DNA of 29,511 nucleotides, from the NCBI GenBank assembly GCA_016190205.1, contig JACPQZ010000027.1, forward strand, positions 1 through 29,511, in the 5' to 3' direction. This DNA comes from Candidatus Omnitrophota bacterium (GTDB lineage: Bacteria > Omnitrophota > JACPQZ01). The notes under the pieces were generated by a model. It saw nothing but the letters and a program-made list of their open reading frames with translations, ran no database searches and was not told the DNA's origin. Below are positions 3,001 to 29,511 of this stretch, piece after piece. Both the position numbers and the translations under genes were made by a program. The first letter of the stretch is position 1. Each line of letters begins with the position of its first letter.

Positions 3001-3459
3001 GCCGAGGTAAATAGACGTTCTTTCCAGAATAGCTCCCCCGTCGCGCTCCGCTCGCACGATGGTGTACGCGGTCTGTGAACCATTGGGCGGGGAAAAGCTC
3101 GAGTAAGGCTGGCTGGAGAAATAACTCCCGATCGACTGCCGGTAGGTGCCGTCCATGAGGATCAGGGTATCGCCGCCGGCCATTCCCCTCCTAAAGGCAT
3201 GTTCGAAAGTGGCCCACGGTGCGGAGCGCGTTCCCGGATTTGCGTCGTGGCCGGAGGGGGAGATGTAATAAGTAGCTGCTAGGGCAGGGCCCGCGCCCGC
3301 GAGCAGGAGAGTAACAAATACAACGTGAGTCCACAGACCACCTATAGACTGTGGGACGTGGGACGTGGGACGTGGGACGTAAACCGTGTACCGTGTACCG
3401 TGACACGAAGCACGATGCACGAAGCACGATGCACGCGGACGAATCAGTTCACGTTTCAT
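1..3459 (-). CDS. Large exported right-handed beta-helix / FG-GAP repeat protein (3' end outside window)
   Basis: An unbroken frame runs from an ATG at 3459 to the left edge (1153 codons, no stop), so the C-terminus is missing. Residues about 46-61 form a hydrophobic signal-peptide core ending in ALA, so the protein is exported. From about residue 63 comes a parallel beta-helix entry (YYISPSG, then a GGDTLILMDGTYR-like turn) continuing to about 420. Residues 535-584 are a calcium-binding DxDGDGLPD/DPDGDHLTNLEEY segment of thrombospondin-3 type. Residues about 590-970 hold roughly seven FG-GAP/VCBS-like repeats (GWP, then SSPAxGDLDxDGD, then VVVGS, then VYAW). Residues about 1034-1139 resemble a ZU5-like domain (DLGPDGTEF). 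The start lies 2 nt after the stop of the upstream epimerase gene, so it is probably the operon's distal gene. The n-region before the hydrophobic core is abnormally long because a 12-unit heptamer array is translated there; a later non-ATG start is possible. Substrate is unknown: it could bind, cleave or anchor polysaccharide. Confidence 0.88.
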   Translation of the reverse strand, partial: MKRELIRPRASCFVHRASCHGTRYTVYVPRPTSHVPQSIGGLWTHVVFVTLLLAGAGPALAATYYISPSGHDANPGTRSAPWATFEHAFRRGMAGGDTLILMDGTYRQSIGSYFSSQPYSSFSPPNGSQTAYTIVRAERDGGAILERTSIYLGGPVDGEARGSSYVQIEGLTLRRSNIRIRHSDHVKIMRTGVKNGVSIDSRYGEVVSINEGSHHVLLEDVWVAGTMVYGVIVFESSNVILRRVVVRFDGNIEREPKSGVCFYGAVDDITASHDSLAQNVIAVDFNPGRGLGAGMQNVHAAKNIRYMGSIALNIPSNGFLINEDWPAGGNEVINSVVWDVREAGIVMRDGDAGQATRIDQVTVGRTDQGIAQWSGWKDENTFTSVRNSLFLANTNRNDQVDVADYNWYNPSGHALGTHSRTDTAQLASIVETPDTGTGEAGSKRGASVLKRYGRSGTLWGEPGYDVLTDEDLWPWPHEERIHELFAEPDGFSYPGTDWEGNPYTVVNNPARGFAAPGETLTQYVRGYLTNVIRYDASAGDRDGDGLPDTWEAEAGLNPGDPRDAAADPDGDHLTNLEEYRLGFDPRRRSVLSNLLASWPRAAEGGAVSTTLGDLDGDRDFELLSGFMVEDPGNSRVYAWDHGTGRVEGWPVATSGSILAAPTLADVDSDRAMDVMVGSETNKIYAWNGDGTPRPGWPVVLEEGIGAVTSSIAVDDINRDGALDAVFGTAGDSVCVLTLEGAPLTGWPVKTGGPVVSSPAIADILPATGLELIAGSDDGTLYCWSSSGQELWHFQSGDKVQSSPAVGDLDRDGNEDIAFGSHDGRLYVLESTGALKPGWPRATSGKITSSPALGDLDRDGDLEVVVGSEDAKVYAWHHSGAPVSGWPRTTGGAIEFSSPAIADIDGDGGMEVIVGSSDGKLHAWHHSGRQVDGFPKVLGASVYASPMIADVDQDGDLDIAVGSSSGMVYVWDVLTPFDSRLVEWGMFRLNARHTGWYRRSSESAVVEEKVIGGQGGIVYVESASSVLFGTQVSVPENGLSETTAITVSEAMDPPSLPEGIQPVGPVVDLGPDGTEFNQPAFLKIPYTQTDLDRAGIQDKSLLKVYQYDETVGRWVELAVVENDTVNQVVTVEVGHFSLFSLGAESPKQIAGAQA
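3351..3434. repeat. Heptanucleotide tandem array, 12 units
   Basis: Twelve contiguous 7-nt units read on the + strand: GTGGGAC four times, GTAAACC, GTGTACC twice, GTGACAC, then GAAGCAC and GATGCAC alternating twice. The array is 84 nt, a multiple of 3. It therefore sits inside the N-terminal coding frame of the beta-helix gene (about residues 9-36) without shifting it. Confidence 0.9.
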
Positions 3460-3460
3460 A

Positions 3461-4501
3461 TTACCCCGCCACAAAGCTCCGCACTGCGGACGAGCTTCCC
3501 GGCCCAAAGCGGGCGCTTGCCTCAATGCGGTCCCAATTTTCCCTAAACCAGCGAAGGGTCTCCCCGAGCCCCGTCTCGAACAGAGTGGCGGGCTCATAGC
3601 CGATGAGCCGCCGGGCCTTATCCACGGATGCCAGAATACGGCTCTTGGTATCCCATTTGCGCCGCTCGGTCAGGGTGTATCCCGCCTCATTGGAGACAGC
3701 CTGGTTAATCATTTTCGCCAGGTCTATAATCTTGATCTCCCGCCCGGAGGCCAAATTAAATTCCTGGCCCACGGCCTGGTCGAAGGAGCCGGCCCGCAGG
3801 AGGCCGTCCACGATGTCGCCGACATACGTGAAATCCCTGGTTTCCTCGCCGCTTCCCGTTATGGGAAGGATCTTCCCCTGCATGGCCCAGAAGATGAAGT
3901 TGGGGATGACATTGCGGTACTGGCCCGGAATTTCCCCGGGGCCGTAGGAATTGAAAAACCGGCACTTGACGACCGGGAGTTCATACTGGTGCCAGAAGAA
4001 GTTCGCGTAGAGCTCGCCCAGCATCTTCGTGATCTGATACGGGGTGGAAAGATGGAGCGACATGAACTCTTCCCTTAAGGGAAGAGGGGCCTGGCTTCCG
4101 TAAATAGAACAGCCTGACGAGGCATAAATAAAGCGCCTGACGCGCGTCATCTTGGAATACTGCAAGAGCCGCAGGGTGCCCAGGCCGTTCACCTCAAGAT
4201 CCGTCTCCGGGTGATCCAGCGAATTTTGATTCGCGAAAAAGGCGGCCAGGTGGTACACGACCTCCGGCTCCTCCATAAACACGCGCTTGAGCTTGACCTC
4301 GTCCCGTATGTCTCCCTCGACAAAAATCACGTTCGGAAGCGAAGGCACGTTCCAGCGCTCGGCGCTCGAGAGGTTATCCAGCACGGTCACCTGCGCCGCC
4401 CCCGCCTCGGCGAGTGCCCGCACAAGGTTGGACCCAATCGCCCCAGCGCCGCCCGTCACCAGCACCCTCTTACCTTTGTATACGTTAAGATACTCACTCA
4501 T
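3461..4501 (-). CDS. NAD-dependent epimerase/dehydratase (extended SDR family)
   Basis: 346 aa, the usual length for extended SDR nucleotide-sugar enzymes. The Rossmann motif TGGAGAIG is at residues 16-23, the active-site region YASSGCSIYG at about 127-135, and the catalytic YxxxK is Y155-Q-I-T-K159. The C-terminal half has NSYGPGE and the conserved RDFTYVGDIVDG segment. By family it would act on a UDP- or other NDP-sugar (4-epimerase, decarboxylase or dehydratase); the sequence alone does not fix which. The ATG at 4501 is chosen over upstream in-frame starts because GAAAGGAG precedes it and because the extra residues would be encoded by the inverted-repeat element upstream. The stop is 2 nt before the start of the large secreted protein, implying co-expression. 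Confidence 0.9.
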   Translation of the reverse strand: MSEYLNVYKGKRVLVTGGAGAIGSNLVRALAEAGAAQVTVLDNLSSAERWNVPSLPNVIFVEGDIRDEVKLKRVFMEEPEVVYHLAAFFANQNSLDHPETDLEVNGLGTLRLLQYSKMTRVRRFIYASSGCSIYGSQAPLPLREEFMSLHLSTPYQITKMLGELYANFFWHQYELPVVKCRFFNSYGPGEIPGQYRNVIPNFIFWAMQGKILPITGSGEETRDFTYVGDIVDGLLRAGSFDQAVGQEFNLASGREIKIIDLAKMINQAVSNEAGYTLTERRKWDTKSRILASVDKARRLIGYEPATLFETGLGETLRWFRENWDRIEASARFGPGSSSAVRSFVAG

Positions 4502-4653
4502 AACACTCTCCTTTCGTTCATTATGAAATGATGAAATGCCCGTCTCGTCCCCTTGGGCCCCATGCGGGCCGATCTCAAGCATCCGGGATACAGCACCCGG
4601 GGCCGGCACCCTTCTCCGCGAAACGTTCGCGCCCCAGCGAGGCGCTCACTCTG

Positions 4654-4712
4654 CATTTTTTGTGCACCGCTCACCTCTGGGCGATCGGGTGGACCCTGCT
4701 GCACAAAAAATG
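4654..4712. repeat. 13-bp perfect inverted repeat with 33-nt loop
   Basis: CATTTTTTGTGCA (4654-4666) is the exact reverse complement of TGCACAAAAAATG (4700-4712). The intervening 33 nt can pair a little more (CACC with GGTG). The T-run is on the 5' side of the stem on either strand, so this is not an intrinsic terminator. Confidence 0.85.
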
Positions 4713-4948
4713 AGGTTCGCTCCGAAGGGCGCCGCCCCCGGCTGCGATCGGCCCGCTGACCTGCAACACCGGCCCAGCCGGTCGATAGGGAAATGCCCGG
4801 CTCGGCCCCTGCAGGCCGCTTCGGCTGTTTTAGGTGTTCTCCGCAGGCGGCGAGGGAAAGAGAACGGCTGCTGTCTGAGGCCCGATTCGAGCGCGACCTC
4901 TGCGTAGCTCCCCGCCGAAACCTGGACGAAAAAGGAGCGAAGCAGGGG

Positions 4949-4972
4949 AAAATCAGCCAGTGGGCTGATTTT
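4949..4972. repeat. Perfect 10-bp stem, 4-nt loop hairpin
   Basis: AAAATCAGCC, loop AGTG, then GGCTGATTTT. On either strand the 3' arm ends in TTTT, so it could act as a weak bidirectional terminator. The U-run is only four long and lies within the stem, so this role is uncertain. It lies inside the 593-bp element, downstream of the glycosyltransferase that ends at 5134. Confidence 0.75.
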
Positions 4973-5133
4973 GGGAGCGCGAGGGCTTAAGCGGGCCGAG
5001 TTCAGCCGTTCCCCGAGCCGGCCAGGAGAACACCGACCCCTCCGAAGCTCCCCTTCGCATGAAGTTCCGGGGGGCGAAGGAGGGGAAAAACAGACGGCGG
5101 CCAAAGGGAACGAGACGGGCATTTCCACTCCTT

Positions 5134-6375
5134 TCACCGATCACCGATCCTAGTTATCAACCGTTCGTACTCGCGGGCACAGTACTCTATCGAAAAATAG
5201 CGTACCGCGTAGTCCCGGCCGCTCGCTCCATATGCTTCCGTCAGCACGCGGTCCTGACGGCACTTCAAAATGGCATCTGCGAGCTCCTGGGGCTCGCCCG
5301 GCGCGACCGCGAGCCCGCACCCCGCCCGGCGTATAATCTGGGGGGCGTCGCCCTCCAGCGGGACGGCAGCCACCGCGGCGCGTCCCGCCGCCATAATGCT
5401 CAAGAGCTTGGACGGAACGACCGGCGTTTTTACCTCTTTGCTCAAGGTGACCAGGCACACGTCGGAGGCATGGAGGAGGCGGGGATATTTTTCCTTTGGC
5501 TGCATGGGAAGAAAGCGCACATTGGAAAGACCCAGGGCCCCCGCTTGACTCTCAAGCCGCGCCTTATCCACTCCGTCGCCCACGATAAGAAAAAGGATGT
5601 CGGGTTTGTCAGATAAGTTCCGAGCCGCCCCCAAAACGGTTTCGAGATCCTGCGAGTGTCCGATCACGCCCGCGAAAGAGACCACAAATGTCTCAGCGCC
5701 TATCCCAAAATCCCTCCGGAATCCATTCACGCGGGGGCCCGGCTGAATCCGGTCCATGTCCACGCCGTTGTGAACCACGTGCAGTTTCTCCGGATCGATC
5801 CCGCAGCGCTCGATGGTGCGCGAGTTTCCGACCGAGTGGACCGTCACCAAATCCGCGCGACGGTAAATAAAACGCTCCAGCCGCCTTAAACCGCCGATGA
5901 GCCACGGGTTTTTGAGGACCCCGAGATCAATGGCGCTCTGGGGGAAGAGGTCCTGAACGTTCAATATAAAAAGGCCTCCTTTAAGCTTCGAAAGGGCCCA
6001 GCCCGCAAGCCCCAGCGGGAGCGGCGGCGAATAAACTAAAGTGGCGTCCGGACTTTCTCCTTTCGCCAAAAGCCCCCGGATAAAAAATATGAAGGCCGAA
6101 ATAAACTGATCGAGCCCGCGCAGAACGTGAACCCCTCTCGGAAGGCAGAGCGTGCGCACCCGAAGCACCCGCATGCCCGCCATCTCCTCTTCGAAGATAA
6201 GGCCCTTGCGGTACTTGGGATCAAGACGATTCCTATCCACATGGTACGAGGGAAAACCGGTCAGGACCTCGACCTCGTGGCCCCAGGAGGCCAGCTTCGA
6301 CCCGATCTCATAAAAAAGATGCGACGCGGAACCATTCTCCGGCGGGAAATACGAGGACACAAGACGGAATTTCAT
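5134..6375 (-). CDS. GT4 glycosyltransferase, WcaI/WbuB-like
   Basis: 413 aa with the GT-B fold layout of family 4. The N-terminus KFRLVSSYFPPENGSASHL, followed by EVLTGFPSYH, is typical of WcaI/WbuB-type transferases of colanic-acid and O-antigen clusters. The N-domain contains NVQDLFPQSA and the linker VVHNGVDMDRI. The donor-binding C-domain has FAGVIGHSQDL, FLIVGDGVDK and VPSKLLSIMAAGRAAVA. It would act on the cytoplasmic face of the inner membrane, adding a sugar (donor unknown) to a lipid-linked repeat unit. The start at 6375 is supported by a 4-bp ATGA overlap with the upstream oxidoreductase; a five-residue longer version is possible. The stop sits on two tandem ATCGGTG heptamers (5134-5147 region), perhaps a minimal version of the arrays seen elsewhere. 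Confidence 0.88.
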   Translation of the reverse strand: MKFRLVSSYFPPENGSASHLFYEIGSKLASWGHEVEVLTGFPSYHVDRNRLDPKYRKGLIFEEEMAGMRVLRVRTLCLPRGVHVLRGLDQFISAFIFFIRGLLAKGESPDATLVYSPPLPLGLAGWALSKLKGGLFILNVQDLFPQSAIDLGVLKNPWLIGGLRRLERFIYRRADLVTVHSVGNSRTIERCGIDPEKLHVVHNGVDMDRIQPGPRVNGFRRDFGIGAETFVVSFAGVIGHSQDLETVLGAARNLSDKPDILFLIVGDGVDKARLESQAGALGLSNVRFLPMQPKEKYPRLLHASDVCLVTLSKEVKTPVVPSKLLSIMAAGRAAVAAVPLEGDAPQIIRRAGCGLAVAPGEPQELADAILKCRQDRVLTEAYGASGRDYAVRYFSIEYCAREYERLITRIGDR

Positions 6376-8516: not shown

Positions 8517-8525
8517 CACTCACCC

Positions 8526-8567
8526 CGCACAACGCACAACGCACAACGCACAACGCGCAACGCACCC
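8526..8567. repeat. Heptanucleotide tandem array, 6 units
   Basis: Units on the + strand: CGCACAA four times, CGCGCAA, CGCACCC. It fills the 63-nt gap between two genes, directly upstream of the two-domain oxidoreductase start, so it lies in that gene's translation-initiation region. Confidence 0.9.
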
Positions 8568-8579
8568 CGCCAGTGTATT

Positions 8580-9749: not shown

Positions 9750-9762
9750 AGCCTATAACTCT

Positions 9763-9899
9763 TTATCAGTTACCAGATACCAGTTACCAGTAACCAGAAG
9801 AAACCAGCTACCAGAAACCAGAAAATTATTTTTTTGCAGGCTTCTCTGGTATCTGGCTTCTGGTATCCTCTGGTATCTGGTAACTGGTTTCTGGTTTCT
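9763..9899. repeat. Inverted pair of ACCAG-type heptamer arrays
   Basis: The left arm (9763-9821) is TTATCAG, TTACCAG, ATACCAG, TTACCAG, TAACCAG, a 10-nt AAGAAACCAG, CTACCAG, AAACCAG. After an AT-rich spacer (about 9822-9843) the right arm (about 9845-9899) has the complementary type, CTGGTNN units. The arms can fold into a long imperfect hairpin. It fills the 148-nt gap and touches the stop codon of the deacetylase gene. A role as terminator or processing site is possible but unproven. Confidence 0.88.
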
Positions 9900-10545: not shown

Positions 10546-10581
10546 GAACGATTTCTCCAAAGTAACATCATATCTATCGAT

Positions 10582-10729
10582 GAGAAACCAGATACCAGTT
10601 ACCAGCAACCAGAAGATACCAGAGGCCAGAAACCAGAAGAAACCGACGATCGGACATCGAACCTGGTATCTGGTTACTGGAATCTATCTGGTAACTGGTT
10701 ACTGGTTTCTGGTTTCTGGTTGTTATCGG
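10582..10729. repeat. Inverted pair of ACCAG-type heptamer arrays overlapping the asnB 3' end
   Basis: The left arm (about 10582-10644) has AAACCAG, ATACCAG, TTACCAG, CAACCAG, AAGATACCAG, AGGCCAG, AAACCAG. After a short spacer (ACGATCGGACATCGA) the right arm (about 10661-10729) has complementary CTGGTNN units. The organisation is very similar to the 9763-9899 array. The right arm extends into the asnB reading frame and supplies its stop codon (10674-10676). Confidence 0.88.
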
Positions 10730-12626
10730 TATTGTCAATATATTTCCTGTGCCACAACTCCAATACGAGCAGTAAAAAGATTCTGCGGTGCATGTCCTCG
10801 CGGCCCGAGCGGTGTTTCTCAAGCAAGGCCTCAATCGCCGATGGACGAAAATACCCACGCGCCAGCGTCCTTTCCTCAAGCAAGATCGCCGCCGCCTTTT
10901 CATATAAGGGTCCCCGGAACCACGCCTTTAAAGGAAGGGGGAAACCTTTCTTGGACCGCTCCGTCCACCCCGGCGGAAGCCGGCGGCGCATGACCTCCTT
11001 TAGGATGAACTTCCCCTTGTTGCCTTTGAGCTTGAAGGCGTCGGGAAGTGCAATCGCAAACTCTACGAGCTCCTGATCCAGAAATGGACACCGGGTCTCA
11101 ACAGAGGCCGCCATCGTCATCTTGTCGCCCTTGAGCAAAAGGTCATCCGCAAGCCATGTCTTGATATCTACATACTGCATCTCACTTAAGAACGTAGGGC
11201 GCTGTCCTCTTTGGACGAGGTCCGAAAAGTAGGTCTCCATGCGGTGATCTTGGGTCACGCGGAATGCGTCCGAATAAAGACGCGACTTTGCCGTTTCGGT
11301 CAGGTCGTTTGACACAGTTTGGTAGCGCGCAGCGCCGGAAAGAGCCAGCCAATCAAGATATTTCTCCAACTTTTCCGGTACACGCGCGGCCGTCGCGGCA
11401 CTGCGCATCCATTGCAATGCCTTGGCCGGAACGAGGGAACGGATTCGGTTTAACATGAGCATCTTCGCGTAAATACCGTAACCGGCAAAAAGCTCATCTC
11501 CCCCCTCTCCGGACAGGAGCACCGTGACATGCTGTTTAGCCATTTTGGCGATTTGAAAAAGCGGAACGCCGGACGCCTCAATAATGGGCTCCTCCGTGTG
11601 CTCGAGCAGGAGATCCAGGGAATCGAAGAAATCCATCGGTCTCAAACGATATTCATGGTGCTCGGTCTTGAAATGGTGTGCGACCGTGCGGGCCGCGTCG
11701 AGCTCGCTTTCCGCCTCGTCCTCGTACCCCACGGAAAAGGTCTGGATGGGCTTGACCCCCAGCTCATGCATCGAGGCCACGACGGAGCTCGAATCCACTC
11801 CCCCGCTTAAAAAAACGCCGAGTGGAACGTCACTGACCAGCCGAGCGCGTACACTTTCCAAAAGCATTTCCTCAAGTCGTCTGGATGCCTCCTGAAACGA
11901 AATGTCCAGCGGCTGAACGCCTTCCAAGTGCCAGAAACTCTCTACCTTCGCCCGCCCGTCCTCGTAAATCAGCGTGTGGCCGGGTGAGAGTTTCAGCACG
12001 CCCTCGAATAATGTCTCCGGCCCGGGGACGAACCCTAAGGTCAGGTAAAAATCGAGCATGGCGCGGTTTAAGGACGGGCGGACCCAGCCGCTCTTGAAGA
12101 GAGACTTCATTTCCGAAGAAAACACAAGGCCGCGCTCACTGAAATGATAATAAAGGGGCTTCTTACCCACCCGGTCGCGGGCGAGGATGAGGCGCTTTTT
12201 CCGGCGGTCCCAAAGGCCGAAGGCGAACATGCCCTTAAGATGCGTCACGAAGTCCAGACCATAAGCCTCATATGCGTGCACGATCGTCTCGGTATCACTC
12301 GAGGTACGAAACCGGAAGCCTTGCTTTTCCAAATCGGCGCGCAGCGCTTTGAAATTATAGATTTCCCCGTTAAACACGACGCATACCGACTCATCCCCGT
12401 TAAACATGGGCTGGCGGCCACCCTGAAGGTCTATGATGCTTAAACGCCGGTGCGCCAACCCTATTCCCCTGTCTATAAAATATCCTTCGCCGTCTGGGCC
12501 GCGGTGGGCCATGGGCTCCGTGGCGCTCCGTAGCCACTCGCGGGTGAGCGCGCCCTCCGGGCCTACTGCCCGCAAGGGCCGGAGGCCCTCCGTCTCCTTC
12601 TGAATGATGCCAAAAATAGCGCACAT
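10674..12626 (-). CDS. asnB: Glutamine-dependent asparagine synthetase-type amidotransferase
   Basis: 650 aa. The N-terminal class II glutaminase begins MCAIFGI with Cys2 as nucleophile after Met removal, followed by AHRGPDGEG, RRLSIID and VVFNGEIYN. The C-terminal PP-loop synthetase domain has LSGGVDSS and the SGEGGDELFAGY motif. In sugar clusters AsnB-like enzymes may make asparagine or amidate sugar acids; here the context allows amidation of a uronic or glycosyl acid, which is inference. The start overlaps the upstream stop by 1 nt (TAATG). The last 18 or so residues (NTDNNQKPETSNQLPDRFQ) are encoded by a heptamer array and are unlikely to be part of the fold. Residues about 14-27 look like a small extra insertion relative to typical AsnB and coincide with a GC palindrome (12576-12588). 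Confidence 0.92.
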   Translation of the reverse strand: MCAIFGIIQKETEGLRPLRAVGPEGALTREWLRSATEPMAHRGPDGEGYFIDRGIGLAHRRLSIIDLQGGRQPMFNGDESVCVVFNGEIYNFKALRADLEKQGFRFRTSSDTETIVHAYEAYGLDFVTHLKGMFAFGLWDRRKKRLILARDRVGKKPLYYHFSERGLVFSSEMKSLFKSGWVRPSLNRAMLDFYLTLGFVPGPETLFEGVLKLSPGHTLIYEDGRAKVESFWHLEGVQPLDISFQEASRRLEEMLLESVRARLVSDVPLGVFLSGGVDSSSVVASMHELGVKPIQTFSVGYEDEAESELDAARTVAHHFKTEHHEYRLRPMDFFDSLDLLLEHTEEPIIEASGVPLFQIAKMAKQHVTVLLSGEGGDELFAGYGIYAKMLMLNRIRSLVPAKALQWMRSAATAARVPEKLEKYLDWLALSGAARYQTVSNDLTETAKSRLYSDAFRVTQDHRMETYFSDLVQRGQRPTFLSEMQYVDIKTWLADDLLLKGDKMTMAASVETRCPFLDQELVEFAIALPDAFKLKGNKGKFILKEVMRRRLPPGWTERSKKGFPLPLKAWFRGPLYEKAAAILLEERTLARGYFRPSAIEALLEKHRSGREDMHRRIFLLLVLELWHRKYIDNTDNNQKPETSNQLPDRFQ

Positions 12627-14718: not shown

Positions 14719-15878
14719 CGTACACCTCCTATAGTAGTCATAGAGATTGCTTCGCCCCGCTCTGCGAGGCTCGCAATGACATGTTTCAACGATTCCAGCA
14801 CATACTCCGCCTGGGCCTCCGTCATATCTGAAAAAATGGGGAGACAAATGTGCCTCGCACACAGCCTCTCCGCCACCGGGAAGGCGCCCTTCCCAACGGC
14901 CTCGAAGACCGGATGCCGGTGGAGCGGGGTCTCGTACACCTCGCCGCTTAAGGCCACGCCGTATTTTTCGCGCAGAAGTTTTTTAAAGGCCGGTCTAGAA
15001 ATACCATCGTCCAGCACCGCAAGATACTTGTAATAGCACCCCGCGCCTCCGGCAGACTCAATCACAGGGGTGATCCCCTCCATACGACCCAGCCCTTCGT
15101 CATAGATCCGCGCGATGCGCGTTCGTGCCGCGATAAATTGCTTGAGCCTCTTAAGCTGGGCGAGGCCCACGATCGCGTGGAGCTCGCTCATGCGCCAGTT
15201 GTATCCCATGCGCACGTGGAAATTGCTCGAAAAGTCTTTTTTACCCTGGTCGCGGTAAATAAGGGCTTCGTTCCGGATGGCCTCGTCATCGGTCACGATC
15301 ATGCCCCCCTCACCACTCGTCATGATCTTGGTGGGGTAAAAGGAGAAGGACCCTGCCGCGCCGAAGGTGCCCGCCAGGCGGCCGTCCCTTGAGGAGCCGT
15401 GGGCATGCGCGGCGTCTTCCACGAGGACGAGCCTGTGCCTGCGGCACAAGGTCTGGATGGCGGCGATGTCGGGAGTGATCATCCCGCCGATGTGGACGAG
15501 CATGACTGCAGCCGTCTTTGGGGTAAGGCGCTCCTCGATGGTTTCGGGTGTAAGCGCAAAGGTCTCTCCGATATCGGCAAATACGGGTGTCGCCCCGGCG
15601 TGCACCACGGCCGCGGCCGTTGCGAAAAAGGTATTGGTCGGTACAATGACCTCCCGGCCTTCCACCCCGATCGCCCGCAGGATGATCTCGAGCGAGCTCG
15701 TGCCGCTGTTCGTCGCCACGGCGTAGCGCGCTCCGTGAGCGCTGGCAAAATCCTCCTCAAACGCGCGGCCGTGCCTGCCTAAGGTAAGCTGGCCGGTGTC
15801 GAGGACAGTCCTTACTTCCTTTAAAATCCAGTCTTTGTCTTCCTCAAAGAAAACGATCTTCGCTCCCGGAACGTTCAT
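14715..15878 (-). CDS. DegT/DnrJ/EryC1/StrS-family PLP-dependent sugar aminotransferase
   Basis: 387 aa, standard family length. TNSGTSSLEIILRAIGV (57-73) binds the cofactor phosphate, VEDAAHAHGS has D155 that pairs with the pyridine nitrogen, and SFSFYPTKIMTSGEGG has K184 as the PLP Schiff-base lysine. VRMGYNWRMSELHA is the conserved substrate-side motif. It would transfer an amino group from glutamate or glutamine to a keto-nucleotide sugar. The start at 15878 has GGAG a few bases upstream and overlaps the previous stop by ATGA. Its C-terminal end (VIASLAERGEAISM) is encoded by a 44-bp REP-like palindrome, so the natural terminus may have been extended. Confidence 0.93.
   Translation of the reverse strand: MNVPGAKIVFFEEDKDWILKEVRTVLDTGQLTLGRHGRAFEEDFASAHGARYAVATNSGTSSLEIILRAIGVEGREVIVPTNTFFATAAAVVHAGATPVFADIGETFALTPETIEERLTPKTAAVMLVHIGGMITPDIAAIQTLCRRHRLVLVEDAAHAHGSSRDGRLAGTFGAAGSFSFYPTKIMTSGEGGMIVTDDEAIRNEALIYRDQGKKDFSSNFHVRMGYNWRMSELHAIVGLAQLKRLKQFIAARTRIARIYDEGLGRMEGITPVIESAGGAGCYYKYLAVLDDGISRPAFKKLLREKYGVALSGEVYETPLHRHPVFEAVGKGAFPVAERLCARHICLPIFSDMTEAQAEYVLESLKHVIASLAERGEAISMTTIGGVR
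14737..14780. repeat. REP-like palindromic element (GTCAT...GCAATGAC)
   Basis: A 44-bp stretch starting GTCATAGAGATTGCTTCG and ending CTCGCAATGAC, with GTCA/TGAC at its borders and a GC-rich centre. From memory it matches the general pattern of widely dispersed bacterial palindromes that read GTCATTGCGAG ... GAAGCAATCTC. It overlaps the last codons of the aminotransferase gene, giving ERGEAIS in frame. Confidence 0.65.
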
Positions 15879-17077
15879 TGTTCACTCCTATATTGCGTGT
15901 TATGTGAATCGTGATTCGTGTTTCGTGATTCGTAAGTCGCTGACGTTTTGTCCACTTTCCGCGCCAACACCTCATAAATCGACTCATAAGCTGTAATCAT
16001 CTGACGGAAGTTGAACTTTTCGCGGACGATGCGGCGGCCCTCTTCTCCCATGCGGCCGGCCCGCGCGGGATCCGCGATGAGCTCGCAGATGGCGTCGGCC
16101 AGGGCCCGCGGGTTTTTCGCGGGGACTACGAGCCCTGTCTTTTTATCCAGCACGAGCTCCGGGTTTCCGTCCACATCGGTCGCCACGGTGGCTAGGCCCG
16201 CCGCCATCGCCTCCAAAAGGACGACGGGGAGGCCCTCTTTATATGAAGAAAGCACAAAGAGGTCCAGGGCCTTGAGAAACTCCGGAATGTCCCGGCGGTT
16301 TCCGAGAAACGTGACCTGGCCGTCGAGACCCAGCTTGTCCTTGCAAGTCACGAGCTCATCCCGCAGGGGCCCGTCGCCCGCGATTAAAAGTCTGGCCCGG
16401 GGGATGCGCGCAACCACCTTCGTAAAAGCCTCGAGCAGGCACTTGTGATCTTTCTCCGGGAAAAAGCGGGCCACGATTCCAATGGCGGGGGTCTTTTCGT
16501 CCAGACCCAGCTCTTTTCTTTTTTGGGCCCGGTCAATCTGGATGTCGTAGAGCGCGGCCTCCACGCCGTTGTAGATGACCTCGACGGGTTTACGAATCCC
16601 CTCCTCTTCTCTCATGAAGCGGGCCACGCTCCCGGCGACCGCAGTGATGCGGGCCGTGATGCGTGCGAGACAGCGCTCGATTGCGTACCAGCGCTTAAAA
16701 TCATAGTCTGGGGAGGTGTGCTCGGTGTGCACCAAGGGAAGCCGCGCTGCTAATGACGTAAGTCCCCCGTAAAACCACCCGGAGGGGTTGTGCGAATGAA
16801 TGACGTCCACCCCTTTTGAGCGCGCGAGGCGCGCGATCTGAAACGGCAAGGTCCAGTTGACGCCCCGCCCCTTCTCAAAGGTGTAGACGGGGATACCCGC
16901 CTCGTTGAACTCCTGGATGAGCTTTACCTCTTCAGCTTGATGAAAAACGCACACAGATGCCCTGAACCGGTTTTTGTCCATGCGTTTCGCAATCTCGAGT
17001 ATCAATGTCTCAATCCCGCCCATCCCCAGGGAGTAATTGACGAAAAGGATGTGTACGCGATCGCGCGTCATTGCCAT
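15875..17077 (-). CDS. GT4 glycosyltransferase
   Basis: 400 aa with textbook family 4 signatures. The N-terminal glycine-rich loop is LGMGGIETLILEIAKRM, then VDVIHSHNPSGW and HTEHTSPDY. The C-domain has GIVARFFPEKDHKCLLEAF, LLIAGDGPLRDEL, and EGLPVVLLEAMAAGLATVATDVDG with the E-x7-E donor motif. It adds a sugar in the cytoplasm; donor unknown. Start choice: ATG at 17077 after AAGGAG, although a TTG at 17083 overlapping the upstream stop (TTGA) is also possible. The final 18 or so residues (TYESRNTNHDSHNTQYRS) are encoded by a heptamer array and are followed immediately by the ATGA overlap with the aminotransferase gene. Confidence 0.9.
   Translation of the reverse strand: MAMTRDRVHILFVNYSLGMGGIETLILEIAKRMDKNRFRASVCVFHQAEEVKLIQEFNEAGIPVYTFEKGRGVNWTLPFQIARLARSKGVDVIHSHNPSGWFYGGLTSLAARLPLVHTEHTSPDYDFKRWYAIERCLARITARITAVAGSVARFMREEEGIRKPVEVIYNGVEAALYDIQIDRAQKRKELGLDEKTPAIGIVARFFPEKDHKCLLEAFTKVVARIPRARLLIAGDGPLRDELVTCKDKLGLDGQVTFLGNRRDIPEFLKALDLFVLSSYKEGLPVVLLEAMAAGLATVATDVDGNPELVLDKKTGLVVPAKNPRALADAICELIADPARAGRMGEEGRRIVREKFNFRQMITAYESIYEVLARKVDKTSATYESRNTNHDSHNTQYRSEQ
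15895..15943. repeat. Heptanucleotide tandem array, about 7 units, in the 3' end of a gene
   Basis: Units on the + strand: GCGTGTT, ATGTGAA, TCGTGAT, TCGTGTT, TCGTGAT, TCGTAAG, TCGCTGA. It is translated on the minus strand as the C-terminal tail of the GT4 enzyme. It sits between the end of the enzyme fold and the stop/start overlap with the next gene. Confidence 0.88.
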
Positions 17078-17079
17078 GT

Positions 17080-18360
17080 TCAAAATATCTCCTTAACAGC
17101 TAATAAATAGACGCAAAAAAGGATCCCCAGCATTCCAAACCCCACCCGTCCGGCGTCCGGCAGGGAAAACTTTAAGGGCTCAAGCTTAAGCTCCCGCTGG
17201 GCGAGGACAAGCACGATGGCGCCTAAGCCCCACCACAGGAACATGGCGTCAAGCTCCATAGTGACAAAGAAGGTCGTCGCCGCGTAGCCCACGAGGCTTG
17301 CGAAAATAGGCCGGGCGAGCTGGCCGGGGTCGAGACCGTCCGCGTGGCGCGCGTTATGGCGAAGCACGCGATGGAGCCCTTTCAGTAAAACGTAAAACAT
17401 GCCGCAGTAAACGAAAAACCCCACGAGCCCCATCTCCGCAAAGTTTTGTACAAAGTTATTGTGCGTCAGGGATTCGCGGCTTCCGGTGTAGCGCCCGAAC
17501 TGGCCTTTACCGACCCCGAGAACAGGATTCGCCTCCAGAGTGTTTAGGCCCTGCTCCCAGAGCCAGGTGTGCTCCCGGGCGGATTTTTCTTCCGTGGTAA
17601 GCTGGGAAAGGCGCGAGGGGGCTAAGAACGTGAAGAACAAGAAGACTGTGAGTGCGCCCATGACGGCGGCCTTTTTCTTGTTTTGAACCCTTAGCCAGAT
17701 GGCTACCGCGAGCGTGGCGAGAAAAGCCAAAAAGCCCCCGCGCGAATCCGTCACGTGGATCCCTGCAAGGAGCAATCCGCATACCCCAAAATAGAAGAGC
17801 CGCGACAAGGGATTGGCGCCTTTTGAAAGCGCAAATTCGAGCGCGATGGGAAAGGTCGTCACAAAAAGAAGCGCGAGCACGTTAGGCCCGTCCCACATCC
17901 CCACCCAGACTGCCCGTCCCAGCTCATAATTGGCCGTAAACATCTCCTGTCCCGCGAAACCCACTCCGGTATGCCTCTGGTAAAGGCTCTGAACCGCCAT
18001 AAAGGCGATCAAAAACACGATGCATTTCAACACCCGGCGCACGTCCTGAAACGAATTGGGAATGGCCAGGAGCATGAGAAAAGGCGCCGCGCGCTTCACG
18101 TAAAAGACAAACTGCCCGAACCCGGACGCAAAATCCCCCCGCACTGCGTTCGTGATAAAGCAGAGGAGCAAATAGCCGATGAGAAAGCGCGTGGGCGCCA
18201 GAAAAACCGATTTTTTTTGCTGCATGAGGCATAAAAGCGCCGCGAGAATTCCCACGCTTAATATCATGTCCACCACGGGGACACCGATCATGCCGGAATA
18301 CCAGTCCTGGGGCCGGATGAAGAGCGCGACCAGATAGAGAAAGATAATCAGGAGGCCCAT
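17080..18360 (-). CDS. O-antigen polymerase/ligase-like integral membrane protein (Wzy/WaaL superfamily)
   Basis: 426 aa, strongly hydrophobic, with about 10-12 membrane segments beginning at residue 2. A large hydrophilic loop in the second half contains EHTWLWEQGLNTLEANPVLGVGKGQF and SLTHNNFVQNFAEMGLVG. The E-x5-G, NP-x-G-VG and THNNF features are the usual signature of O-antigen ligase/polymerase loops. In a cluster with a flippase it is most likely the Wzy polymerase joining repeat units on the periplasmic face; a ligase role is the alternative. AAGGAGGT lies directly upstream of the ATG at 18360, an unusually good ribosome-binding site. The start overlaps the preceding GT2 gene by 13 bp. 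Confidence 0.88.
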   Translation of the reverse strand: MGLLIIFLYLVALFIRPQDWYSGMIGVPVVDMILSVGILAALLCLMQQKKSVFLAPTRFLIGYLLLCFITNAVRGDFASGFGQFVFYVKRAAPFLMLLAIPNSFQDVRRVLKCIVFLIAFMAVQSLYQRHTGVGFAGQEMFTANYELGRAVWVGMWDGPNVLALLFVTTFPIALEFALSKGANPLSRLFYFGVCGLLLAGIHVTDSRGGFLAFLATLAVAIWLRVQNKKKAAVMGALTVFLFFTFLAPSRLSQLTTEEKSAREHTWLWEQGLNTLEANPVLGVGKGQFGRYTGSRESLTHNNFVQNFAEMGLVGFFVYCGMFYVLLKGLHRVLRHNARHADGLDPGQLARPIFASLVGYAATTFFVTMELDAMFLWWGLGAIVLVLAQRELKLEPLKFSLPDAGRVGFGMLGILFCVYLLAVKEIF

Positions 18361-21758: not shown

Positions 21759-21783
21759 TTGGTAAGGCGCCCTTTTAGAAATT

Positions 21784-24804: not shown

Positions 24805-24805
24805 G

Positions 24806-25765
24806 TCAGCCGCCCAACAGACTCTTGTAGCGAACCCCATAGGCCACCCGGAACGCCCTCTGCACAAGCGTAGAGCTGAACACTCCTCGTACCGGAGGCA
24901 TCGCGTTTATCAGCTTCGAGACGGCGGTCATGGGAAGCTCGTCCGACCATCGTACCCCCCTCCCCTGCAACGAATATTCCCATACGGAGCGGTTCTTGTG
25001 ATAACTATTAGGCATGAGCGTGGTCGGCTTGCCCAAGAGTGATCCTAAACATGCCGAATGCAGACGGTTGGTCACGATGGCGCGGGCCCGGCTGTGTAGC
25101 TCAACCCACTGCTCAAACGTATCGCAAAAAAGCACCGGATCCAGCCAGACGGCAGCGTACTCTCGTGCGGCCAGTGGCACCCCTTCCGGATCTTCCCGAA
25201 TGGAATGCAAAACGAAGCGCCCTGTGAGGCCGCTGCATGCAAGCTCAGAGGGTGAAATATTGAGCGCCGTGTCATGATCGATGTCGATCTCCATCCACTT
25301 GGGAGCACACGCCTGCAAATTGCGGTAGGACCTCTCCTCCCTGGCGAACATATGGACCCTCAGAGCCGAGCGGACATCCAAGGCACCGAAAACTTTTTCT
25401 TGTAGGAAGCGGTGATTGTCCTCCAGAGTCTGCGGACCTTGAATGACCACGCCGCGATGTGTGCTTACCGCCCTCTTTAAAATCTCGAAAGGAGCTCCGG
25501 ACCACCACGAAGTGTACCCGCCGTGGCCGTGGATGTAGACGACGTCCTCCTTCTTAAGCTCCGCCTTCATAAAGGAGGCTACGTCTTTACGCTCAAATTG
25601 AATCCCAGCCGCGGCCGCAAGTTTTTCGGCCCCCCTCCAGATCAAGTAATCTCCAAAGTTACCGCCCGGCTCAACAAACAAAAAACGGGATAGACGGTAT
25701 TCCCGAAACAACCGGAATAGCTTGGTGGACACGATGGAGCCGCACGGGCTAATGTGTTGGGACAT
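24806..25765 (-). CDS. Polysaccharide pyruvyltransferase-family protein
   Basis: 319 aa. EPGGNFGDYLIWRGAEKL (about 32-49) is the N-terminal glycine-rich motif of the family. HGHGGYTSWWSGAP, VIQGPQTLED and TNRLHSACLGSLLGKPTTLMPNSYHKNRSVWEYSL (about 233-267) are the conserved C-terminal block, with RLH and NSYHK. Members attach a ketal-linked pyruvate from phosphoenolpyruvate to a hexose; some are involved in other sugar modifications. Cytoplasmic; the acceptor sugar is unknown. It overlaps the upstream PP-loop gene by 17 bp, so the two are translationally coupled and probably act in the same decoration step. Confidence 0.85.
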   Translation of the reverse strand: MSQHISPCGSIVSTKLFRLFREYRLSRFLFVEPGGNFGDYLIWRGAEKLAAAAGIQFERKDVASFMKAELKKEDVVYIHGHGGYTSWWSGAPFEILKRAVSTHRGVVIQGPQTLEDNHRFLQEKVFGALDVRSALRVHMFAREERSYRNLQACAPKWMEIDIDHDTALNISPSELACSGLTGRFVLHSIREDPEGVPLAAREYAAVWLDPVLFCDTFEQWVELHSRARAIVTNRLHSACLGSLLGKPTTLMPNSYHKNRSVWEYSLQGRGVRWSDELPMTAVSKLINAMPPVRGVFSSTLVQRAFRVAYGVRYKSLLGG

Positions 25766-26927
25766 GGCTCTTAACCTCGGGCCGCCACAGATGCAGACTA
25801 CGAAGACCCCACTTCAGAACTTGTTTCATGGCTCGCCACAGAGCCAGACCCCCCCTCCTCGCATAGTAGAACCCAAGCCAAAGGGCCAGGCAACGCGTGA
25901 GGACGCTTTTTATTCCCAGCCTGCGCGCCGCCTCAAGATCTTCCTTCACATACTTCACCGTACCTTCACTCATATCCAGTTTTCGAAGCTTGGCTATACT
26001 GAATCTGGATCGAAATGTCGTGCATCGGTTCAGCACGCCCAGCATGGAAAGGGGGATCATCGTCCGCACGCATTTCTCGCAGCGGCCGCAGTTGTAGGTG
26101 CCGCCCAGGTTTTCCCAGCAGACTCTAAGGGTTTTGAGAACGATCTCACTCCCTATGATACGTTCGATTTTTCCAAAGCGTGTAGCTTCACAGCCATCGT
26201 GATCGATCTCCATCCCCTCCGTACTCCAACGGGGGTCCACCAGAGGATGTGATCCTCTTGGATGAAGGTGTAAATACGTATTCGAAGCTGGGATATAAAT
26301 TTTTCCCAATTGCGGAGCCAGGAGCAGGGCCACGCTGGCCAGAGCAGAACCGTGATAATGCGTGCCCCAGTGGGCAAACCTTTCCGAAAAATCTCGCAGG
26401 TTGGTATCTACTTCGATCAACTGCTTCCCAAACTCCCTGCTGATCCCCCTGATGGCGCAGGCCGCCTCGGCCCGCAGAGCAGTATCGGCCAACTTAAGAT
26501 CAAACCCGTGCACAAATACCAGATGGGTAATCTCCTCCCGGTGCTTGAGGAAGGTATAAAATGAATCTACCCCGCCTGAAAAAAAACACCCGACTCCGCG
26601 GGCGGCACCGTTCCCTAAACCGCCGCCTGTCCGGACATCTGTGCGAACCCCATGCAAACCGGGGTCCCACACACGATATATTTCCTGAATGCGCGCTGCG
26701 CCCCGAAAAAGCCTTTTGGATACGCTCCCGTCGAGGTGGAGCGGTCCTCCCTCCTGCATCGCGGGAATGAGCGTGGCGGCGAAAAATGTTTCGTCACCAG
26801 ACGAAACAGGGCCTTGTGAAGAACGGTAATAGATGTCGTAGCTTCGATCGTTCTTCACATGGATCCTCGAGGAAACCATGAACTGCCCGTTCTCCACCCC
26901 GCACCGGGGTCTTTCTACCGAAATCAC
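25749..26927 (-). CDS. PP-loop ATPase with QueC-like zinc site, function unknown
   Basis: 392 aa. GCFFSGGVDSFYTFL (113-127) is a PP-loop (SGGxDS) of the adenine-nucleotide alpha hydrolase superfamily. Near the C-terminus C270, C280, C283 and C286 (NCGRCEKC) form a Cys-x9-Cys-x2-Cys-x2-Cys cluster, close to the zinc site of QueC/ExsB. The N-terminal 100 residues do not match QueC. Such enzymes activate a carboxylate or carbonyl by adenylation and then ligate ammonia or similar. I do not know a characterised member with this layout in a polysaccharide operon. The start is a GTG at 26927 overlapping the previous stop (GTGA), with AAGGGA upstream. Next to pyruvyltransferase and kinase-fusion genes, it may modify a sugar acid. 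Confidence 0.8.
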   Translation of the reverse strand: MISVERPRCGVENGQFMVSSRIHVKNDRSYDIYYRSSQGPVSSGDETFFAATLIPAMQEGGPLHLDGSVSKRLFRGAARIQEIYRVWDPGLHGVRTDVRTGGGLGNGAARGVGCFFSGGVDSFYTFLKHREEITHLVFVHGFDLKLADTALRAEAACAIRGISREFGKQLIEVDTNLRDFSERFAHWGTHYHGSALASVALLLAPQLGKIYIPASNTYLHLHPRGSHPLVDPRWSTEGMEIDHDGCEATRFGKIERIIGSEIVLKTLRVCWENLGGTYNCGRCEKCVRTMIPLSMLGVLNRCTTFRSRFSIAKLRKLDMSEGTVKYVKEDLEAARRLGIKSVLTRCLALWLGFYYARRGGLALWRAMKQVLKWGLRSLHLWRPEVKSHVPTH

Positions 26928-28408
26928 GCGTTCCCTTTTAGGATTGACTTGACCGCGTTCAGAACTTGGTCAAAGCCTGCCAGCCATTTCGGATCATGAC
27001 GCACCCCCCCGCTCCGCACGAGGCGGCACACCCAGGCCATCACGCATAGGGCAGGCATGACTTCTGCCGGGATCTTGAGGAGGTTTAGGTAAACGTCGAA
27101 ATCCCGCTTCATAGGCCCGGAATACTGTTGCGGCATAAACTCCCCGATGATCATATCTTCAAAAGTCTTTCCGTAAAAAAGCTCCCCTGCGCGCGCCGCG
27201 CTGTAGTACAGGTCGAGGAGTGGGAGACCCTTTTCGTTCGACATCTCCCAGTCCACGATGGCGGCGAGGCGCCGGGTCTTCGGATCCACCAAAAAGTTTT
27301 CGTAGTAAAAATCCCCATGCTCCCAGACCAGCGGAATGCGCTGGCCTAAAACTATCTTGTGGACCGCGTCTTCGATCCGCTTGAGGCCGGAGGCGCGTTC
27401 CCCCAGGGCGGGATAGAGCGCCTGGAACGGTTTCGCAAAGAGTTGTTGGTACAAGGCCTCATCCACCGTGCGGCGCTCACAGGTCATCTTTTGAAACTGG
27501 ATGAGATAACCGGTTGCCTGCGCGATGACCGGCCTTAGAACCGGCGTGGGCTGGTCCACAGAAACTGCGGGAAAACCTTCCAACACTGCATAGCGGCGGC
27601 CTTCCAGGACCCCGCCCCAGTAGAACTCCGGCGCCTTGATCTCTTTCAATAGAAACCTCTTCCCAAGCGCCTTGAGGATTTCTTCCTCATGCTCCATAAA
27701 GCCCTCGGCCCAGCGTATGATGGGAAACTTGACCGCGAGCAGTCGGTTCCCCAGGCGGACCTGTAAAACACCTTTACCGTGGAGGACGAAAGCGCGTTCC
27801 ACCTTTGGACTCGCCGTGACATGCCAGCGCCTTTTGGCCTCGCTGGACACCTCGCGCAAGAGCGCCTCAATGAATGACGGTTCAGCCGGCTCCCGGACTG
27901 CTGTCAGAGCATGCGCGGGGGCAAAGCGCGAAAAAATACGGCTTGAGAAAAACCTTTCCTTGATGCCTTCCCGCAGGTTGATCGCTCCCCGGAAGGGCCT
28001 GGGGCCTAAGCCCATGACCTCGCCAGCGTTTTCCGCATCCGGATGCAGCGCGTATTCGCGGACACCTGAAAAGCCAGCCTGCTCCAGTGCGCGCCTGACT
28101 TTTTTTCTGGAAACGGCATGTCTCATCCCATTGGCGCGCACGAGGTGGTTATAGCCCCAGCGGTTGGGCACGGTTACAAAAAGCCACCCATCTGACTTGA
28201 GCACGCGCGCGGCCTCGGCCAAAAATTTGGGGGAAGAGCCTTGGGAGGCCAGGCTCGCATCAGGCACGACCACACCGTCAAAACTCTTGTCTGGAAAAGG
28301 CCAGGCGCCAGACGCGCCGGTGCCGTTTAGGGAACTTGCGTCCAGCACCCGCCCGCCCTGCGGGTTCCTCGTCAAAAAACTTAGACGGAAACCGTTTTCG
28401 ACGCCCAT
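26924..28408 (-). CDS. Truncated SAM-methyltransferase-like domain fused to an APH/choline-kinase-type phosphotransferase
   Basis: 494 aa. Residues about 20-160 resemble the second half of a class I methyltransferase (WPFPDKSFDGVVV, AARVLKSDGWLFVTVPN, HAVSRKKVRRALEQAGF). The SAM-binding motif I (E/DxGxGxG) is absent; VLDASSLNGTG sits in its place, so methylation is doubtful. Residues about 200-494 are an aminoglycoside phosphotransferase-like kinase: HGDFYYEN (364-371) is the catalytic HxDxxxxN motif and IVDWE (385-388) the metal-binding loop. Neighbouring genes suggest it phosphorylates a sugar or alditol. The ATG at 28408, with GGGAG about 9 nt upstream, is preferred to a GTG two codons earlier. 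It overlaps the galE 3' end by 28 bp. Its C-terminus is duplicated as the pseudogene fragment near 23.7 kb. Confidence 0.78.
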   Translation of the reverse strand: MGVENGFRLSFLTRNPQGGRVLDASSLNGTGASGAWPFPDKSFDGVVVPDASLASQGSSPKFLAEAARVLKSDGWLFVTVPNRWGYNHLVRANGMRHAVSRKKVRRALEQAGFSGVREYALHPDAENAGEVMGLGPRPFRGAINLREGIKERFFSSRIFSRFAPAHALTAVREPAEPSFIEALLREVSSEAKRRWHVTASPKVERAFVLHGKGVLQVRLGNRLLAVKFPIIRWAEGFMEHEEEILKALGKRFLLKEIKAPEFYWGGVLEGRRYAVLEGFPAVSVDQPTPVLRPVIAQATGYLIQFQKMTCERRTVDEALYQQLFAKPFQALYPALGERASGLKRIEDAVHKIVLGQRIPLVWEHGDFYYENFLVDPKTRRLAAIVDWEMSNEKGLPLLDLYYSAARAGELFYGKTFEDMIIGEFMPQQYSGPMKRDFDVYLNLLKIPAEVMPALCVMAWVCRLVRSGGVRHDPKWLAGFDQVLNAVKSILKGNA

Positions 28409-29361
28409 TTCCACGCGCTCCCAATGAGGGTGTCCAAATCAGAATACCTCGGCCTCCAGCCGAGCTCACGACGAATGCGTTCACTCGACGCCACCAAGAC
28501 CGCCGGGTCCCCCGGCCGGCGGGGCCGGTCCACGAAGGGGACCTTCTTCCGCAATAACGCTTCCGTGGCCTGAACAATCTCCCTGATGGAAAACCCTTTT
28601 CCATTACCCAGGTTGTAAACTGCCGAATCCTTTCCTGCGCGAAGCGCGCGATACGCCAGGACATGCGCCTCGGCCAGATCGCTCACATGGATATAATCGC
28701 GAACAGCGGTGCCATCAGCAGTCGCGTAGTCGGTGCCGTAGATCTCAAGCCGGGGAATCTTCCCCAACACGGCGTTCAAGACATTCGGGATGAGGTGTGT
28801 CTCCGGCTCATGATCCTCCCCGAAACGCCCCTTGGGATCCGCGCCCGCCGCGTTGAAATAACGCAGGGCGACGGTGCGCATGAAACCCGCCGCGCGGTAC
28901 GTCTCGAGCGCCCGCTCAAATACGAGCTTCGACCAGCCGTACGGATTGGTCGGCCTTAAGGGGTGGTGCTCCGGAATAGGCACCTCTTCCGGTTCTCCGT
29001 AGACCGCGGCCGTGGAACTAAAAATGATCTCTTTTACCCCGCAACGGACCATGGCCTCGAGAAGAGTGAGTCCGTGGCTTACGTTATTCGTGAAGTATTT
29101 TTCCGGATCCCGCACCGATTCGCCCACCTCGCAGTGGGCAGCCATGTGGATCACGGACTCGACATGGAATCTCTTAAGGGTCTCCGCCACCCCGTCAGGA
29201 TCAGCGGTGCTCCCCTCGACAAAATCGGCGCCCCGCGGCACAAGCTCCCGGTGGCCTTTGGTTAGATCATCCAGCACCACCGTCCGGACGCCCTCATCCA
29301 CAAGCCTCTGCACGATGTGACAACCGATGTACCCGGCCCCGCCGGTGACTAAACACGCCAT
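28381..29361 (-). CDS. galE: UDP-glucose 4-epimerase (GalE-like SDR)
   Basis: 326 aa, the typical GalE length. TGGAGYIG is at 6-13, S116 and Y141/K145 form the SDR catalytic triad (SSTAAVYG; YGWSK), RYFNAAGAD lies near 168-176, and the GalE signature EDHEPETHLIPNVL near 182-195 is strong. The GTDYATADGTAVRDYIHVSDLAEAH segment is also typical. It interconverts UDP-glucose/UDP-galactose or the N-acetylated forms. It appears to be the first gene of the run within the window. Its ATG at 29361 has GGAG about 11 nt upstream, and the leader contains a heptamer array. No clear sigma-70 promoter could be assigned in the 150 nt to the window edge. Confidence 0.93.
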   Translation of the reverse strand: MACLVTGGAGYIGCHIVQRLVDEGVRTVVLDDLTKGHRELVPRGADFVEGSTADPDGVAETLKRFHVESVIHMAAHCEVGESVRDPEKYFTNNVSHGLTLLEAMVRCGVKEIIFSSTAAVYGEPEEVPIPEHHPLRPTNPYGWSKLVFERALETYRAAGFMRTVALRYFNAAGADPKGRFGEDHEPETHLIPNVLNAVLGKIPRLEIYGTDYATADGTAVRDYIHVSDLAEAHVLAYRALRAGKDSAVYNLGNGKGFSIREIVQATEALLRKKVPFVDRPRRPGDPAVLVASSERIRRELGWRPRYSDLDTLIGSAWKWASKTVSV

Positions 29362-29390
29362 ATGCCTAAAATCTCCATAAATGCTCCGAA

Positions 29391-29449
29391 AGAGAAACCA
29401 GAAACCAGTTACCAGAAACCAGAAGATTACAGATACCAGATACCAGAAT
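29391..29449. repeat. ACCAG-type heptamer array upstream of galE
   Basis: Units on the + strand include AAACCAG, TTACCAG, AAACCAG, a degenerate AAGATTACAG, ATACCAG and ATACCAG. It has the same unit family as the arrays at 9763-9899 and 10582-10729 but is single-armed within the window. It lies about 30 nt upstream of the galE start, in its 5' leader. Confidence 0.85.
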
Positions 29450-29511
29450 TAAAGAATAAGAGCCCTTAACATGCTTGTGATTTCTCTGGCATCATTGCGA
29501 AGAGTGACATA

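What the first reader, a model, noticed from the sequence alone, without database searches (positions are those of the whole stretch)
3351..29449. Family of heptanucleotide tandem arrays at the non-overlapping gene junctions
Arrays at 3351-3434, 8526-8567, 9763-9899, 10582-10729, 15895-15943 and 29391-29449 all have period 7 but different unit sequences (GTGNNAC, CGCACAA, ACCAGNN, TCGTGNN). A two-unit trace lies at 5134-5147. They occur where genes are not overlapping, or inside the extreme ends of ORFs. Short tandem heptamers (STRR) are known from heterocystous cyanobacteria, but here the units diversify while the period is held. That suggests a copying mechanism acting on length rather than on sequence.
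Basis: partly seen in the sequence, partly recalled or inferred. Interest (0 to 1): 0.75.

Follow-up and report, generated by a model that had tools for sequence, protein, structure and literature searches.

The report
Heptamer arms of tiny gene-carrying elements
The seven-letter repeats scattered between this bacterium's genes are the paired arms, usually left without their gene, of tiny element-like units that carry one small protein gene (called IVP or S23), and across three phyla each version of that protein tends to sit between its own seven-letter word.

Summary
The window has 8 period-7 arrays where chance gives 0. The genome has 286 in 940 kb and almost none at other periods. Two of the three ACCAGNN arrays form long hairpins; the third is one arm cut by the contig end.

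Four of five IVP genes (PF05635, S23p, "four helix bundle protein") in this genome have heptamer arrays alongside, three of them on both sides. The window's last 63 bases are the 3' end of such a gene, inside an ACCAGNN arm.

Across three phyla, IVP flanks show lag-7 periodicity and the two arms of a locus are complementary (z = 18, 15, 14). Y1-transposase flanks show no lag-7 signal. The unit differs between loci, yet IVPs 60-70% identical keep similar arms.

Best explanation: the arrays are arms, and gene-less derivatives, of small IVP elements, relatives of the 23S-rRNA intervening sequence, in which heptamers were already noted (Coxiella, PMC4990558). The heptad spacing probably matches an IVP multimer that reads the unit (inferred). 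No reverse transcriptase was found in this genome. How the elements move is unknown.

The parts
29449..29511 (-). 3' end of an IVP (S23p, four-helix-bundle) gene, last 20 codons and stop, cut by the contig end
   Evidence: Translation YVTLRNDAREITSMLRALIL*, identical to the end of the IVP gene at G000:C24:40299-40613; 151-bp BLASTN match, 96.7%
29393..29448 (+). ACCAGNN arm (4 heptamers, AAG, then 3) of that IVP element
29361..29392 (.). 32 bp outside the arm shared with two C24 copies; in the window it runs to the ATG of the epimerase gene (28381-29361, minus strand)
9763..9824 (+). left arm of gene-less ACCAGNN element 1
   Evidence: hairpin z = -9.0
9825..9844 (.). loop of element 1, no gene
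9845..9899 (-). right (inverted) arm of element 1
10583..10638 (+). left arm of gene-less ACCAGNN element 2
   Evidence: hairpin z = -10.1
10639..10662 (.). loop of element 2, no gene
10663..10721 (-). right (inverted) arm of element 2; by the ORF list it runs into the 3' end of the asparagine synthase ORF (10674-12626, minus strand)
3351..3435 (.). mixed array GTGGGAC, ACCGTGT, then CACGAAG/CACGATG; the last unit resembles the arms of the IVP element at G000:C21:23009-23323
   Evidence: no significant hairpin
8526..8563 (.). solo CGCACAA array between two minus-strand genes
15904..15939 (.). solo CGTGATT-type array inside the 3' end of a glycosyltransferase ORF (15875-17083, minus strand)

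Best explanation
The heptamer arrays are the arms of small IVP elements (about 430-470 bp), or what is left of them. A full element is: a 5' arm of tandem heptamers, one gene for the four-helix-bundle protein IVP/S23p, and a 3' arm complementary to the first. Gene-less copies (two arms and a short loop) and solo arms make up most of what is seen in the window. SHOWN: the association, its period-7 specificity, complementarity of the arms, dispersed copies, presence/absence at fixed sites, purifying selection on IVP. INFERRED: a multimer of IVP (solved relatives are pentamers) binds successive heptads, which fixes the spacing at 7 while the unit letters drift in step in both arms and with the protein; gene-less copies are spread or kept in trans. 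UNKNOWN: the chemistry of movement (no RT found in this genome, no target-site duplication seen, no known transposase linked).
For: Four of five IVP genes of this genome have arrays alongside, three on both sides, each with its own unit; a 63-base IVP gene end lies inside the window's last arm. 35 IVP loci of the phylum: period-7 arrays within 200 bp upstream in 25, downstream in 22, both in 17; periods 4-6 and 9-13 none; control windows 5 of 70. Lag-7 excess in IVP flanks of three phyla: +0.113/+0.094, +0.046/+0.064, +0.102/+0.131, other lags about 0 +/- 0.01, repeated on 40 new loci. Arms of one locus complementary: z = 18.2, 15.0, 13.7. Arm similarity follows IVP similarity: mean cross-score 10.5 at 40-45% identity, 19.0 at 60-70%; Mantel r = 0.27, 0 of 500 permutations. 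Dozens of ACCAG copies with one layout and an internally deleted IVP copy (C24:38971-39193). Genomes with 4 or more ACCAG hits: 16 of 17 have IVP against 156 of 268 others, p = 0.0018. Site polymorphism among congeners. IVP dN/dS 0.00-0.18. Coxiella IVS has tandem heptamers by its S23p ORF, copy number varying between strains (PMC4990558).
Against: Binding of IVP to heptads is not shown. Many more unit families than IVP genes exist in this genome, so most arrays have no resident gene of their own unit. One of five IVP genes has no array. The Bacteroidota signal is weaker by simple array counts. IVP-less site versions could be losses: the more distant genome G351 has IVP at all four tested sites. 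Only 3 of 20 IVP-rich genomes showed arrays in the stretch sampled. The IVP-arm correlation may partly be shared descent.
Confidence: 0.72

Rival explanations
1. Replication slippage alone: a polymerase footprint of about 7 nt favours gain and loss of heptamers (idea of Mrazek and colleagues 2007), with no element involved.
For: Heptanucleotide excess is known in many bacteria and was explained this way (PMC4679880, PMC4692102). Copy number of some arms differs between close relatives (site F). Slippage may well homogenise units inside an arm.
Against: Does not explain IVP linkage, inverted complementary arms, fixed 4+3 layout, retention of the unit with IVP, or near-absence in 262 kb of IVP-less genomes of the same phylum.
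Confidence: 0.1
2. Arrays are host features (insertion hot spots or regulatory sites) and IVP genes land in them or recruit them.
For: Two of the three IVP-less site versions hold a solo array of another unit between the same two genes; arrays far outnumber IVP genes.
Against: Arms match each other at each locus (z 14-18) and follow the IVP protein; at site E protein and arms differ together.
Confidence: 0.12
3. Binding sites of a host regulator of translation or transcription, or terminators, as proposed for TAACTGA repeats of Beggiatoaceae.
For: Arrays sit in co-directional gaps and some run up to start codons; TAACTGA repeats lie just upstream of starts (PMC4679880).
Against: A single regulator cannot use more than 60 units in one genome; convergent gaps, where terminators are expected, are depleted; no Rfam match.
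Confidence: 0.04
4. Products of a reverse transcriptase (DGR-like or telomerase-like) or of a REP-associated tyrosine transposase.
For: IVP is a distant relative of the DGR accessory protein Avd (weak DivGenRetAVD match, E = 1e-4; PMC10053308); four Y1 transposases in the genome.
Against: No RVT_1 hit in this genome, the densest in ACCAG heptamers of those searched (assembly 92.8% complete, so not absolute); Y1 genes are not next to arrays and have no lag-7 flanks.
Confidence: 0.02

Closest known systems
23S rRNA intervening sequence (IVS) encoding S23p/IVP, e.g. Coxiella burnetii (PMC4990558)
   Same: One IVP/S23p gene, about 430 nt, terminal inverted repeats, tandem heptamers beside the ORF.
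   Different: Here the elements lie between (or in the ends of) protein genes, not in 23S rRNA; arms are longer heptad arrays; many gene-less copies; IVP is under purifying selection, not decaying.
Heptameric simple sequence repeats: STRR of heterocystous cyanobacteria, GGGAATC of Xanthomonas (PMC4692102), TAACTGA of Beggiatoaceae (PMC4679880)
   Same: Intergenic tandem heptamers; in Xanthomonas also inverted pairs (70 and 75 cases).
   Different: Those reports describe one or a few units per genome and no linked gene; here more than 60 units, with IVP linkage. The solved IVP 2gsc (Xcc0516) is from X. campestris, but its flanks were not tested here.
Diversity-generating retroelement accessory protein Avd
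   Same: Same four-helix-bundle superfamily (weak match).
   Different: No template/variable repeat pair sought or seen; no reverse transcriptase detected in this genome.
MITE and REP/BIME elements
   Same: Short, multi-copy, hairpin-forming, gene-less derivatives.
   Different: Arms are heptad tandem repeats; no transposase; no target-site duplication seen; Y1 transposase flanks lack the pattern.

Membership tests
23S rRNA intervening sequence (IVS) | encodes S23p/IVP | tested here: met
   PF05635 / TIGR02436; C-terminal 20 codons in the window
23S rRNA intervening sequence (IVS) | terminal inverted repeats forming a stem | tested here: met
23S rRNA intervening sequence (IVS) | size near 430 nt | tested here: met
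   C24 element about 470 bp; filled sites about 360-470 bp longer than IVP-less ones
23S rRNA intervening sequence (IVS) | located inside a 23S rRNA gene | tested here: not met
   No Rfam (hence no rRNA) match in 20 IVP loci of about 3 kb or in the window; neighbours are protein genes
23S rRNA intervening sequence (IVS) | excised from RNA by RNase III | not testable with these tools
   needs RNA data
STRR / long simple sequence repeats | tandem heptamers beyond chance | tested here: met
STRR / long simple sequence repeats | simple repeats without element structure | tested here: not met
   fixed layout and paired arms
MITE-like element | multi-copy, inverted arms, derivable from a gene-carrying element by deletion | tested here: met
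   C24:38971-39193 is an internally deleted copy of C24:40216-40680; 32 pairs
MITE-like element | target-site duplication | tested here: inconclusive
   none visible at the polymorphic sites read; ends not sharply defined
REP with RAYT | Y1 transposase linked to the repeats | tested here: not met
Diversity-generating retroelement | reverse transcriptase with Avd | tested here: not met
   no RVT_1 hit in this genome

The most novel reading that the evidence does not exclude
IVP proteins define a widespread class of minimal mobile elements without a known transposase. A ring-shaped IVP multimer reads a tandem heptad word in the two arms, protein and word co-evolve so that each family has its own code, and the heptameric repeats reported separately in Xanthomonas, Nostoc, Beggiatoa, Bacteroidetes and the Coxiella IVS are footprints of this class.
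Probability: 0.45. Interest if true: 0.92.

Novelty: new variant of a known kind. Interest (0 to 1): 0.82.

Why it matters
The excess of heptanucleotide repeats in bacteria has had no specific explanation beyond a suggested polymerase footprint, and the IVP/S23p family, very common and of solved structure, has no known function. The two puzzles appear to be one: in three phyla the gene sits between heptad arms whose word follows the protein. This gives a directly testable function (sequence-specific heptad binding), a candidate new kind of selfish element, and a practical rule for annotating such repeats.

Tried and rejected
Rfam scan of the window and of 20 IVP loci: nothing. Reverse transcriptase and RAYT as drivers: not supported. 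RNA-hairpin selection by G-U versus A-C mismatches: no difference (180 vs 169; 142 vs 164). Exactly five units per arm to match a pentamer: the mode is 4-5, not sharp; kept only as an idea. Specificity residues in IVP: weak correlations only, best at residues 50-56 and 98-104 of the L147 fragment (r up to 0.08). Nostoc plasmid IVPs lie in clusters of hypothetical genes and were not pursued. Simple self-match detection missed many degenerate Bacteroidota arrays, so pooled autocorrelation was used.
Full report
What is there. The window is a complete contig (G000:C15) of a 1.65-Mb draft genome. At a score where shuffled sequence gives none, the window has eight period-7 segments and no segment of any other period from 4 to 13. 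The two-unit trace at 5134 is at chance level. In 940 kb read from the same genome there are 286 period-7 arrays and 0-5 at other periods except 14, a multiple of 7; shuffles of the first 553 kb gave none. More than 60 unit sequences occur. The arrays are enriched between genes and in co-directional gaps.

The ACCAGNN arrays are elements, not loose repeats. In 940 kb there are 32 pairs in which an ACCAGNN array is followed after 16-372 bases by its inverse, plus 12 single arms, several at contig ends. Most arms have the same layout: four heptamers, AAG or ATAG, then three heptamers. The two pairs in the window fold with z of -9 and -10. The variable dinucleotides of the two arms match each other less than those of different elements do (0.33 against 0.547 +/- 0.032), which leaves roughly one mismatch per heptamer in the stem. 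A layout shared by dozens of dispersed copies means that whole elements were copied (inference).

The linked gene. One ACCAG loop on contig C24 encodes a four-helix-bundle protein (IVP, S23p; TIGR02436 E = 2e-21; PDB 2gsc and 2rld). The genome has five IVP genes. Four have heptamer arrays within about 130 bases, three on both sides, each with its own unit. The last 63 bases of the window are the end of an IVP gene identical in its final 20 residues to the C24 copy, just inside the arm at 29393-29448, so the contig breaks inside a gene-carrying copy. C24:38971-39193 is an internally deleted copy. These three copies share about 32 bases beyond the arm but lie before different genes.

Generality. 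IVP genes occur in 172 of 285 genomes of the phylum, 116 of 148 in the phylum of the Bacteroidales MAG and 70 of 118 in the phylum of Desulforhopalus. Flanks of IVP genes show a lag-7 excess in all three, with other lags near zero and no signal in regions 600-1000 bases away, nor in the genes themselves for the two phyla where I checked; 40 further loci repeated this. The two arms of one locus resemble each other's reverse complement far more than arms of other loci do (z = 18, 15, 14). Y1-transposase genes of the same phylum show no lag-7 signal, though their flanks have some complementarity (z = 8.8, much lower absolute score). In 262 kb from 20 IVP-less genomes there was one low-complexity period-7 array; in 321 kb from 20 IVP-rich genomes there were 17, in three genomes.

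Word and protein. Between loci the unit varies widely, but it is not free: arm similarity rises with IVP identity above 50% and is high at 60-70%, where neutral spacer would be expected to be saturated (dS above 2 between the two IVPs of site E). In the two phyla tested, the sense strand of the 5' arm is richer in G than C (61 loci against 9). Arms next to IVP genes most often hold 4-5 units; the solved Xanthomonas relative is a ring of five subunits (PMC4990558). I infer that an IVP multimer reads successive heptads, which would hold the spacing at seven while letting letters drift in step. I found no report of such binding.

Turnover. Four closely related Bacteroidota genomes share most of the IVP sites read, yet three of the four sites tested have the IVP in some and lack it in others. 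Two of the IVP-less versions hold a solo heptad-like array of another unit. At a further site (E) one species carries a different IVP with different arms. A more distant genome has a gap of IVP size, with an IVP hit, at all four sites, so loss is as possible as gain. No target-site duplication was visible. IVP has dN/dS of 0.00-0.18, so the protein is under selection.

Mechanism. Best supported: small selfish or domesticated IVP elements plus gene-less derivatives. Not established: how they move. No reverse transcriptase was found in this genome, Y1 transposases are not linked, and mismatches give no sign of RNA-level selection, so DNA-level recognition is somewhat favoured.

Known or new. Heptanucleotide excess in bacteria is known and was ascribed to a polymerase footprint (Mrazek 2007, as cited in PMC4679880 and PMC4692102). 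Inverted heptamer pairs were described in Xanthomonas (PMC4692102). The Coxiella 23S-rRNA IVS has tandem heptamers next to its S23p ORF, varying in number between strains (PMC4990558). I found no paper among those held that joins heptamer arrays in general to IVP. The elements here share four defining features with the IVS and fail one (location in 23S rRNA), so I call them IVS-like, not IVS.

Limits. Hosts are mostly unnamed; my gene model is crude; IVP loci were taken mostly from the top-scoring hits; the sample of IVP-less genomes is modest; the IVP-arm correlation may partly reflect shared descent.

Noticed in passing
L092:1420-1575 (Desulforhopalus vacuolatus DSM 9700): An ACCAG/CACCA heptamer array with a short inverted start appears to lie in frame inside a UDP-GlcNAc 2-epimerase-like ORF, and an IVP gene lies about 1 kb upstream on the same contig.
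   Followed up: partly
window:29511 and G000:C24:47851-47974: Both contigs end inside ACCAG IVP elements, one with the left arm and gene start, the other with the gene end and right arm; they could be the two halves of one copy, which would place the window next to C24.
   Followed up: partly
window:4533-4559 and 5099-5125: A 27-nt inverted repeat, 93% complementary, 539 bases apart, unrelated to the heptamers.
   Followed up: no
window:23748-23833 and 27000-27085: An 86-base direct repeat, 83% identical, in different parts of the gene cluster.
   Followed up: no
Bacteroidota congeners, site C (L338, L342, L347, L335): The 5' half of the IVP gene in L347 is far more diverged than its 3' half and flanks, as if recombined with another IVP copy.
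   Followed up: no
flanks of Bacteroidota IVP genes: A small secondary lag-8 excess downstream (+0.029), possibly arms with 8-nt spacing.
   Followed up: no
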